Shown: one piece after another, positions 7,001 to 10,000 of the stretch
How the letters are laid out: each line of letters opens with the position of its first letter
Position numbering within the stretch: position 1 is the stretch's first letter
Source of the DNA: Perca fluviatilis
Taxonomy: Eukaryota > Chordata > Actinopteri > Perciformes > Percidae
Assembly (NCBI RefSeq): GCF_010015445.1
Contig: NC_053120.1
Span: 16,233,597 to 16,297,596, forward strand
Direction: 5' to 3'
Length of the DNA: 64,000 nucleotides
Translations under genes and position numbers: made by a program
Notes under the pieces: model-generated
Seen by the model: the letters and a program-made list of their open reading frames with translations, nothing else
Database searches by the model: none
What the model was told of the DNA's origin: nothing

Positions 7001-10000
7001 CAGATACGCCATGTTTCGGCTGTGCCGTGGTTATGTTCTGACCTCCACCATACCACACCAGGAGCGTTTTGCCTGCCTGATGCAGATTGCAGATTTGGTT
7101 GATTTGGTCTTTTTTTTTGGGGATACTTGTAGCATAAAATAAGTAGTCTACAGCGGTTTCTTCCATTTAGTCCAGGGATTACTGACCTGTTTTTCCAGGA
7201 GGAATGATCTTCAAATGTTTCTTAAGGATTTCTTCAAGACTTTTTTTGTTAGGGACTCATTTCAAAACAACACTTCTTTTGATGATTGAGACATTTTTTG
7301 GCAATAGGAACAGAGTTTGTGTTTAGGAAAATTACTTAAAGGCACACTACTTGAATGATCATTGTAAAAGCTGCAAGATTTTGTCAAATCACAATCCATT
7401 TAAACATATTTTCCTTTTACATTTTGTGATGACCACTTGCAGGAGTAGAACTCATGTATCTGACTCTTACCTTACAGATCTGAGAAGCAAAAGCAGCATC
7501 CGCCTGGGGGTGACGTGTTGGTTACTCTCCATGTAGCCAATAAGGCTGCCGTTGGGCAGGTACTCCATCACCAAACTCATACTGAGGCGACCTGTGAACA
7601 GGCAAACATTAAACATTAAAGTCATTCAGCAGAGAAAAAAACCTTCCAAACCCAGAAGACAGGCACTGCCAATCATGTCTCATTCCTTGAATCGGCCGTA
7701 AATCGCTCTAGACGACGGTGTCATCTTAAGACTGATTTAAAATGTAACCCAGGATCATGCAGAGGATGCATATACTCCAAAGGTATAAAGGAAGAAGAAA
7801 ATAAGTTGGACCGACAACTGTTACAAGATTGAACTCAAGTTCTGAGATAGTTCTATGTATGTAATAACGCCAAAATTCCCCTTACATAAAACTGACCAAC
7901 CGAGTTCATTATACAACTAGTTTTATTTATTAGTTATTTGTTTATTATTAGATAGGAGAGATGAAATTAAAAATAGGTATTTTTGAAACTAAGCATTCTA
8001 ACAACTTTGATCTTTTACTGAAGTTGATTATTTAAGTACATCGTGTGCTATGGTTGCAGTGAGTCTTTTTATTACCCGTGCTGTAGCAGACTCCTCTGTA
8101 TTTGACGATGTAGTCGCAGTGTAAAACGCTGAGGGTTTTGACCTCCTTCTTGAAGTCCTCCAGGGTCGACTGCTTGTTGGGCTGCAGCTTTTTCACAGCG
8201 ACCAGTTCACCGGTGTTATCGCTGTAGCGGGTCATAACGGCAAAGTTCGACGCTGCCAAAGTTTCCCTGGAAAAGTTTTAAGTCATTCAGTTGTCACTCA
8301 CGTCCAAAAATTATAATAAACCTCACCACACATGTGCCACTGCAAGACATGATATATGAGATTATGTGAGGCATTTTGAAGATAAAAAGGAGGCTTGTGC
8401 AAAGAGACAGCTTATCATAAAATAACTTTTTCATATTATATGAACAGATAGTGGCTTTGGTTAATATGCTGTGTGCTCTGTCCTGTATATTCATCTGTTA
8501 GTCCATCAAACAATGTTTTGTGCACCATCATGACCTCTTAATGAAAGGTCAGTGGTTAATGTGAGTCATTTACATTTTTGAAATACAAAATTGGCCATGT
8601 AATTTAAAGTTCCCATATTATGAAAAAAACACTTTTCTGGTATTTGGGGTGTTCTTTTGTGTCTCTGGTGCTTCCACACACATACAAACTTTGAAATAAA
8701 TCCATCCATGTTGTTTTGGTGAGATATGGTTTCTGAATGTGTCCTGCCTTCAGTCTCCTGGTGAGCTGTTCAAAATCGGCTCGGACTGTGACGTCACAAT
8801 CCGAAACGAGCTGGCTAACCGCAACGTTAGCTCGTGCATAGCATGCTAACGTTAATGCCTAACCTCGTTCTCAATAGCAAAGCACTGCTACAACACACAC
8901 AAGTTCACCATAATCTACAAAAGAACTACTTACATGTGCTCCCTCATTTAGAAGTTTCCCAGCTAATCCTGCCTTGTAAGTGACTGAAGTTGGAGAAACA
9001 GCCTGTCTTTTACTTCTATGGAGCTAGCTAGCTGACATGATCTACATCTGAGCTACTGAGCATGTGCGAGTGCAATCAAAGATAGTACAGAAGAAATAGA
9101 AGAAAAGAGGTCTCACTCTGTAGCTAAAACAGAAACCAGGTGAAAAGAGGATCTACAGCAGTGAGAGAGCTGTGCAGTACAACACAAATATGGTGTTTTT
9201 TGAAAATTAAACCATGTAAACCTATTCTGGTACAACCTTAAAATACAATTATGAACCTGAAAATTAGTATAATATGGGCACTTTAAATTGTCTATCCATC
9301 ATGATACAATGACCGATCACAATAAGATCATGATCGTTGCACTGATTGGCCCAAAGGGATCTGCATTATAAATATTGTGGTCCTCTAGTTGTTCTGGCGC
9401 TGCAGACTTACTTTCCCCAGAGGATGGATGTAGCGTAGGTGTCTCTCCTCAAACAATGTCTGGTTGTGTTGAGCAGGGCTGATGGCTCTCCACACAGGGC
9501 TCTGTGTGACGGGCTCAGCAGCATGTAGTATCTCATAGTCTGCCATGAAACACAAAAGCATATTGGTAATGGCTTTTTGGTTTTCTGATGTAATAGAAAA
9601 ACCTTATTAAAAAAAGCACTACCCATTTTGAGAGAGATGTTCAGGACCAAATAGAAGGACAATAGAAGCATTTCAGATTATAATTTGTGAAAATGATGGG
9701 CTGGGATCAGATTTTTTCAACACTGGATCAACACTGATCAGAAAAGTTTAAAATGGGTCAATTTATAAATGCTCTTGTTTATTGAATTGAAATAAAGAAA
9801 AGTGAACTTGACATTTGATAAGATATGTGGTTTATAATGGTCGTATGCATTATCAGCTGACTAGTGTAATGATTACCCGAAGTGATCAGACTGTTGAGTT
9901 GACGAATGATACTGCGACAGGAAGGTCTAAAGGCTGCCTCGTAGTCCATACACTGACTGATCAGCTCAGCTAGCTCTGTCCACTGGGAGGGAGGCAGCTG

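What the first reader, a model, noticed from the sequence alone, without database searches (positions are those of the whole stretch)
8215..8230. One-base insertion in jak3 exon 18 breaks the kinase domain
Exon 18 must begin in phase 0 and end with one base of a split codon; at 191 bases it is one too long. In the incoming frame it reads GNFGSVELCRYDPLQ, then Arg and a TAA stop. Removing one base at the Gln/Asp junction restores DNTGELVAVKKLQ, which joins the next exon correctly. Read literally, JAK3 ends at about residue 848, keeping FERM, SH2 and JH2 but losing JH1. It could be a real null or dominant-negative allele, a lineage-specific loss, or an assembly indel.
Basis: seen in the sequence. 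Interest (0 to 1): 0.75.

Follow-up and report, generated by a model that had tools for sequence, protein, structure and literature searches.

The report
Likely assembly errors in perch jak3
A fish immune-signalling gene looks cut short in this sequence, but it carries a cluster of tiny insertions and deletions without the other changes a truly dead gene would collect, so it is most likely a genome-assembly error and not a biological loss.

Summary
On the minus strand, jak3 exon 18 (8266-8076) has 191 bases and the literal protein stops after 848 residues, before the kinase domain. But it is not a single lesion. Frame-aware alignment to relatives shows +1 in exon 18, where a Gly codon has become CAGC; -1 (plus an in-frame -3) in exon 19; and, with the two percid references, -1 just before the stop in exon 23. 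Exon 23 also reads EGAAC where three percids read EERPC. Removing one base from exon 18 would not restore JH1. Outside the hit codons, JH1 has no amino-acid change private to this sequence (0 at 241 sites where three percids agree). Decay leaving 3-5 indels should bring about 7-37 amino-acid changes at assumed rates. No frame break was seen in other coding sequence checked in the window, part of it joined by eye. SLC5A5 matches Perca fluviatilis, whose published assembly is nanopore-based. Residual consensus error is most likely (0.88). No reads could be examined and the window's assembly is unknown, so a real allele is not excluded.

The parts
4063..17984 (-). jak3 gene, coding part, 23 exons
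   Evidence: Gene model with GT-AG borders; orthologs over 99% of the spliced protein
9412..9539 (-). exon 17, last exon before JH1 (ends ...HPLGK), intact
   Evidence: no frame break in exons 1-17
8076..8266 (-). exon 18, 191 nt where relatives imply 190
8221..8224 (-). CAGC in place of one Gly codon: +1 frameshift
   Evidence: with four of four reference proteins (P0001, P0002, P0007, P0012)
8216..8218 (-). premature TAA after residue 848
7471..7591 (-). exon 19, 121 nt; carries an in-frame -3 near 7514/7515 and a -1 near 7493-7488 (MLL-FASQICK)
   Evidence: with four of four reference proteins; the -3 column is a gap in 14 of 127 orthologs, so it may be natural
6643..6815 (-). exon 20 (HRDLAARN, DFG), intact
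6230..6347 (-). exon 21, intact
6001..6114 (-). exon 22, intact
4063..4209 (-). exon 23; EERPC replaced by EGAAC (4170-4159, probably a compensated -1/+1) and -1 near 4104-4103, so the relatives' stop (TGA 4093-4091) is missed and 9 residues are added
   Evidence: the -1 was placed with two of four references (P0001, P0002)

Best explanation
The frameshift is one of a local cluster of small consensus errors in the assembly of a Perca genome (most likely P. fluviatilis) that falls on jak3 exons 18, 19 and 23. The animal's real gene most likely encodes a normal JAK3 of about 1,112 residues. Shown: several lesions, no private amino-acid substitutions in JH1 beside them, no frame break in the other coding sequence checked, and intact JH1 in two percid relatives. 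Inferred: that reads would not support the indels, and that the errors are residual long-read errors that polishing missed.
For: Frame-aware alignment places +1 in exon 18 and -1 in exon 19 with 4 of 4 reference proteins, and -1 before the stop of exon 23 with the two percid references. Exon 23 also shows EGAAC against EERPC in three of three percids. JH1 (exons 18-23) has 0 private amino-acid changes outside hit codons at the 241 of 289 sites where P0001, P0002 and P0003 agree; at the 25 sites where P0003 has a gap, none differs from both others. Exons 1-17 have 4 private changes at 761 such sites of 832. At 3-10 substitutions per indel (my assumed range), 3-5 indels predict 6.7-37 amino-acid changes, and P(0) is 1.3e-3 or less. 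Kinase motifs in exons 20-22 are intact. No frame break in jak3 exons 1-17 or SLC5A5; pieces of CLUAP1, KCNN1 and CCDC124 align to solved relatives; the b3gnt-like frame is open. SLC5A5 equals the P. fluviatilis protein P0121 except at match ends. Published P. fluviatilis, P. schrenkii and S. vitreus assemblies used nanopore R9.4 reads (PMC11209984, passages). Long-read errors are mostly short indels that can make false pseudogenes (PMC12007338, passages on bacterial genomes).
Against: No reads or transcripts were seen, and the window's own assembly could not be reached (genome search did not complete). The published P. fluviatilis assembly was polished with Illumina reads. Long homopolymer runs are not generally scarcer in 3.9-8.4 kb: runs of 6 or more are fewer (1.78 v 2.5 per kb in the whole window), but runs of 9 or more are commoner (0.67 v 0.27); this speaks against a wholly unpolished patch. 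The exon 18 change (Gly codon to CAGC) is not a plain run-length error. All events falling in JH1 exons is unlikely for errors strewn evenly (9.6e-4 for 3 events, 9.3e-6 for 5), so a local cause is needed that I cannot show; exons 20-22, between the hit exons, are clean.
Confidence: 0.88

Rival explanations
1. The sequenced haplotype carries a real null jak3 allele with several small indels in the kinase exons; the fish is a heterozygous carrier.
For: The literal sequence; no reads contradict it.
Against: Several independent indels on one allele with no private amino-acid change beside them in JH1. jak3 loss of function severely reduces T cells in zebrafish embryos (PMC10932405, passages), so such an allele should be rare.
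Confidence: 0.07
2. Lineage-specific loss of JH1 in this Perca species, with the FERM-SH2-JH2 part kept as a kinase-less adaptor or decoy.
For: Exons 1-17 are in frame while every frame-breaking change lies in JH1 exons; within jak3 this has a chance of 0.016 (3 events) to 0.001 (5 events). Exon 23 loses the subdomain XI Arg-Pro; Arg is kept by 118 of the 119 orthologs with a letter there.
Against: JH1 outside the hit codons shows zero private changes; P. flavescens and S. vitreus read through intact; a stop in exon 18 of 23 should trigger nonsense-mediated decay (recalled).
Confidence: 0.03
3. Splicing avoids the exon 18-19 lesions; skipping exons 18 and 19 together (312 nt) keeps the frame.
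For: 191 + 121 = 312 nt, and exon 17 ends and exon 20 begins in phase 0.
Against: Skipping removes the glycine loop and the VAVKK lysine, so the kinase would be dead; P0001 and P0002 hold the residues of both exons; the exon 23 lesions would remain.
Confidence: 0.02

Closest known systems
Teleost JAK3 orthologs (P0001 Perca flavescens, labelled hypothetical protein; P0002 Sander vitreus, labelled JAK2)
   Same: 97% / 96% identity over 99% of the spliced query
   Different: They read through JH1 intact, 1,112 residues; the window has three frame-breaking indels and one altered motif
Gene-fragmenting indel errors of long-read assemblies (Kastor PMC12007338, passages; Homopolish PMC8011154, search listing only)
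   Same: Short indels that make false pseudogenes; in the Kastor passages most indel errors are false deletions
   Different: The Kastor passages describe bacterial genomes; here the events cluster in one part of one gene, and the exon 18 change is not a run-length error
JAK3 truncations in human SCID and zebrafish jak3 loss-of-function mutants (PMC10932405, passages)
   Same: Predicted loss of JAK3 function
   Different: Those are shown in patients or mutants; here only the assembled sequence shows it

Membership tests
Janus kinase (JAK) family | FERM, SH2 and pseudokinase (JH2) domains in order | tested here: met
   Pfam FERM_F1, FERM_F2, Jak1_Phl, SH2_1, SH2 and PK_Tyr_Ser-Thr above cut-off in the 848-residue literal protein
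Janus kinase (JAK) family | Tyrosine kinase domain JH1 in the same frame | tested here: not met
   Literal frame stops after residue 848; the pieces read in their own frames, with X at two places, match JAK2/JAK3 JH1 with E from 2.6e-110 to 1.5e-101 in the 60 rows shown
JAK3 rather than JAK2 | Synteny with SLC5A5, CCDC124 and KCNN1 (human 19p13.1, recalled) | tested here: inconclusive
   SLC5A5, an SK-type channel best matching SK2 among solved chains (KCNN1 is my reading) and CCDC124 lie in the window; the human order is recalled, not tested
JAK3 rather than JAK2 | Closer to JAK3 than JAK2 by sequence | tested here: inconclusive
   Best solved JAK2 JH1 scores higher than best JAK3 (371.6 v 354.3 bits); no chain named JAK3 among the 60 rows shown for exons 1-17; orthologs are named JAK3 (P0015, P0018, P0040, P0084) or, in many rows, JAK2
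True pseudogene | More than one disabling lesion | tested here: met
   +1, -1, -1
True pseudogene | Relaxed constraint: excess substitutions in the dead part | tested here: not met
   0 private amino-acid changes in JH1 outside hit codons
Assembly consensus error | Indels absent from reads or transcripts of the same fish | not testable with these tools

The most novel reading that the evidence does not exclude
A Perca lineage has lost only the catalytic JH1 of JAK3 and keeps a FERM-SH2-JH2 protein as a kinase-less common-gamma-chain partner, with JAK1 doing the signalling.
Probability: 0.03. Interest if true: 0.75.

Novelty: not a real feature. Interest (0 to 1): 0.08.

Why it matters
It guards against a false claim of JAK3 loss in a fish and shows a test that needs no reads: count private substitutions beside the indels. 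If it were real, a vertebrate living without JAK3 catalysis would bear on how much common-gamma-chain cytokine signalling needs JAK3 kinase activity.

Tried and rejected
Two-base deletion in exon 18: my first reading of the alignment (noted); rejected after reading the sequences, which have Gly where the window has CAGC, net +1. The correction is noted.

Loss of a conserved Gly in NNWRLP: rejected; the three percids also have Trp.

The -3 in exon 19 as a further error: left open, because 14 of 127 orthologs also have a gap at that column. The missing Glu in exon 1 (-3 in a GAG repeat, 4 of 4 references) is likewise in frame and left open.

Truncated P. fluviatilis entry in public databases: searched with the literal 848-residue protein. 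No row of the 120 listed (of 694 matches) is named P. fluviatilis, nor any (120 of 717); names are cut short, some rows have none, and cluster members are hidden, so a P. fluviatilis JAK3 may be in the database unseen. P0244 (Xyrichtys novacula, 841 aa) ends just after the exon 17 residues and looks like a truncated gene model.

Homopolymer depletion as a mark of an unpolished patch: not found.

Literature: no paper of the held library has both 'jak3' and 'Perca fluviatilis'. A search on Gymnocephalus genomes, made when I thought the fish might be a ruffe, gave nothing used. Searches gave listings from which three papers were opened for passages.

One search was added to count the sites.

Full report
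What is in the sequence. jak3 lies on the minus strand with 23 coding exons (17984 to 4063) and GT-AG borders. Exons 1-17 are open and in frame. Exon 18 is 191 nt, and the literal protein stops after 848 residues at CAG-CGA-TAA (8224-8216). The 848-residue protein holds FERM, SH2 and the pseudokinase by Pfam.

Comparison with relatives changes the picture. Search with the spliced protein gave Perca flavescens P0001 (97%), Sander vitreus P0002 (96%) and Etheostoma spectabile P0003 (92%) at the top. P0001 and P0002 read through JH1 intact; P0003 lacks 25 JH1 residues. They read DPLGDNTG, so the window's CAGC stands where a three-base Gly codon is expected: 123 of 127 fetched orthologs have Gly there (one each D, C, Q and a gap), and 0 of 127 match DPLQD or DPFQD. 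A frame-aware alignment of the spliced DNA to four reference proteins gave +1 in exon 18 and, in exon 19, an in-frame -3 and a -1, in 4 of 4. It gave a -1 just before the stop in exon 23 with the two percid references but not with P0007 and P0012. After that last -1 the bases AAG GGC TGA reproduce the percid ending PKG-stop in the shifted frame. In frame, exon 1 lacks one Glu of a GAG repeat in 4 of 4 alignments. The exon 19 -3 may be natural: 14 of 127 orthologs have a gap there.

Decay or error? JH1 as read has 289 residues; at 241 of them P0001, P0002 and P0003 agree, and the window differs only in codons touched by the indels. At the 25 sites that P0003 lacks, the window differs from both others at none. 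Exons 1-17 show four private changes at 761 such sites of 832. If the kinase part had been free to decay, 3-5 indels should come with 6.7-37 amino-acid changes at 3-10 substitutions per indel (an assumed range), and zero has a probability of 1.3e-3 or less. Decay is therefore very unlikely, and errors in the consensus are the natural account.

Controls. tblastn of the P. fluviatilis SLC5A5 protein P0121 finds its exons each in one frame, identical except for residues at the ends of matches. P0121 may come from the same assembly, so I compared it with two other percid proteins: P0123 (Etheostoma) follows it but lacks 13 residues at one place and is longer at the C-terminus; P0122 (Sander lucioperca) lacks a few residues in one loop and one Trp, and its C-terminal end differs. 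None of this shows a shifted frame inside P0121. Pieces of CLUAP1, KCNN1 and CCDC124, chosen by eye from open frames, align to solved relatives: KCNN1 without a gap, CLUAP1 with short gaps, CCDC124 with gaps of four and two residues, the first at a join made by eye. Because pieces were chosen as open frames, these three are weaker controls. The b3gnt-like frame at 207-1376 is open; it was not compared with relatives. Together with jak3 exons 1-17 this is 7,723 nt of coding sequence without a frame break seen, against 844 nt of JH1 with at least three.

Where the sequence comes from. The SLC5A5 match points to P. fluviatilis; jak3 exons 1-17 differ from P. flavescens at 19 of 832 residues. P. 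schrenkii is not excluded. Published P. fluviatilis, P. schrenkii and S. vitreus assemblies used nanopore R9.4 reads polished with short reads, and for P. fluviatilis a long-read gap-filling step (PMC11209984, passages read). I cannot tell which assembly the window is from.

Against this reading. No reads were seen. The events cluster in JH1 exons more than even scatter allows (9.6e-4 for 3 events to 9.3e-6 for 5 over all coding sequence checked; 0.016 to 0.001 within jak3). Homopolymer runs are not generally depleted in 3.9-8.4 kb: runs of 6 or more are fewer than in the whole window, runs of 7 alike, runs of 9 or more commoner. The exon 18 change is not a plain run-length error. These leave room for a real allele, but that allele would need several indels and no amino-acid substitutions.

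Which JAK. The neighbours SLC5A5, CCDC124 and an SK-type channel (read as KCNN1) agree with human JAK3's neighbourhood as I recall it; solved JAK2 scores slightly above JAK3 over JH1, and many public records name the orthologs JAK2, so the name rests on synteny and on the records that say JAK3.

Mechanism if real. A stop in exon 18 of 23 should send the mRNA to nonsense-mediated decay (recalled rule), so null is likelier than dominant-negative. Zebrafish jak3 loss of function severely reduces embryonic T cells (PMC10932405, passages).

Verdict.

Noticed in passing
4600-5800: Decayed LINE-like reverse transcriptase fragments on the minus strand inside the last jak3 intron (pieces such as FIDLKKALDTINHNIL and NKFLGVIIDDRKSWKSHI); the name is by eye, family not tested.
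   Followed up: no
8600-9300 and 19230-19450: Related-looking repeats ending in 'tataatatgggcactttaa' / 'cataatatgagcactttaa' in a jak3 intron and upstream of the gene, perhaps a MITE.
   Followed up: no
P0001-P0120: Many public records name this gene JAK2 although it sits beside SLC5A5 and CCDC124, and some records (P0015, P0018, P0040, P0084) name it JAK3; perhaps a widespread misnaming.
   Followed up: partly
P0050, P0085, P0043; P0244: Two Sander lucioperca models end in PKVCSLYMIQ, which is what the window's intron after exon 22 encodes; a third (P0043) and one Xyrichtys novacula model also end early. Likely gene-model faults, or intron-retaining transcripts.
   Followed up: partly
18580-18670 and 23165-23250: Two long CA dinucleotide repeats upstream of jak3.
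   Followed up: no
207-1376: Single-exon b3gnt/b3galt-like glycosyltransferase frame, open throughout; the name is by eye.
   Followed up: no
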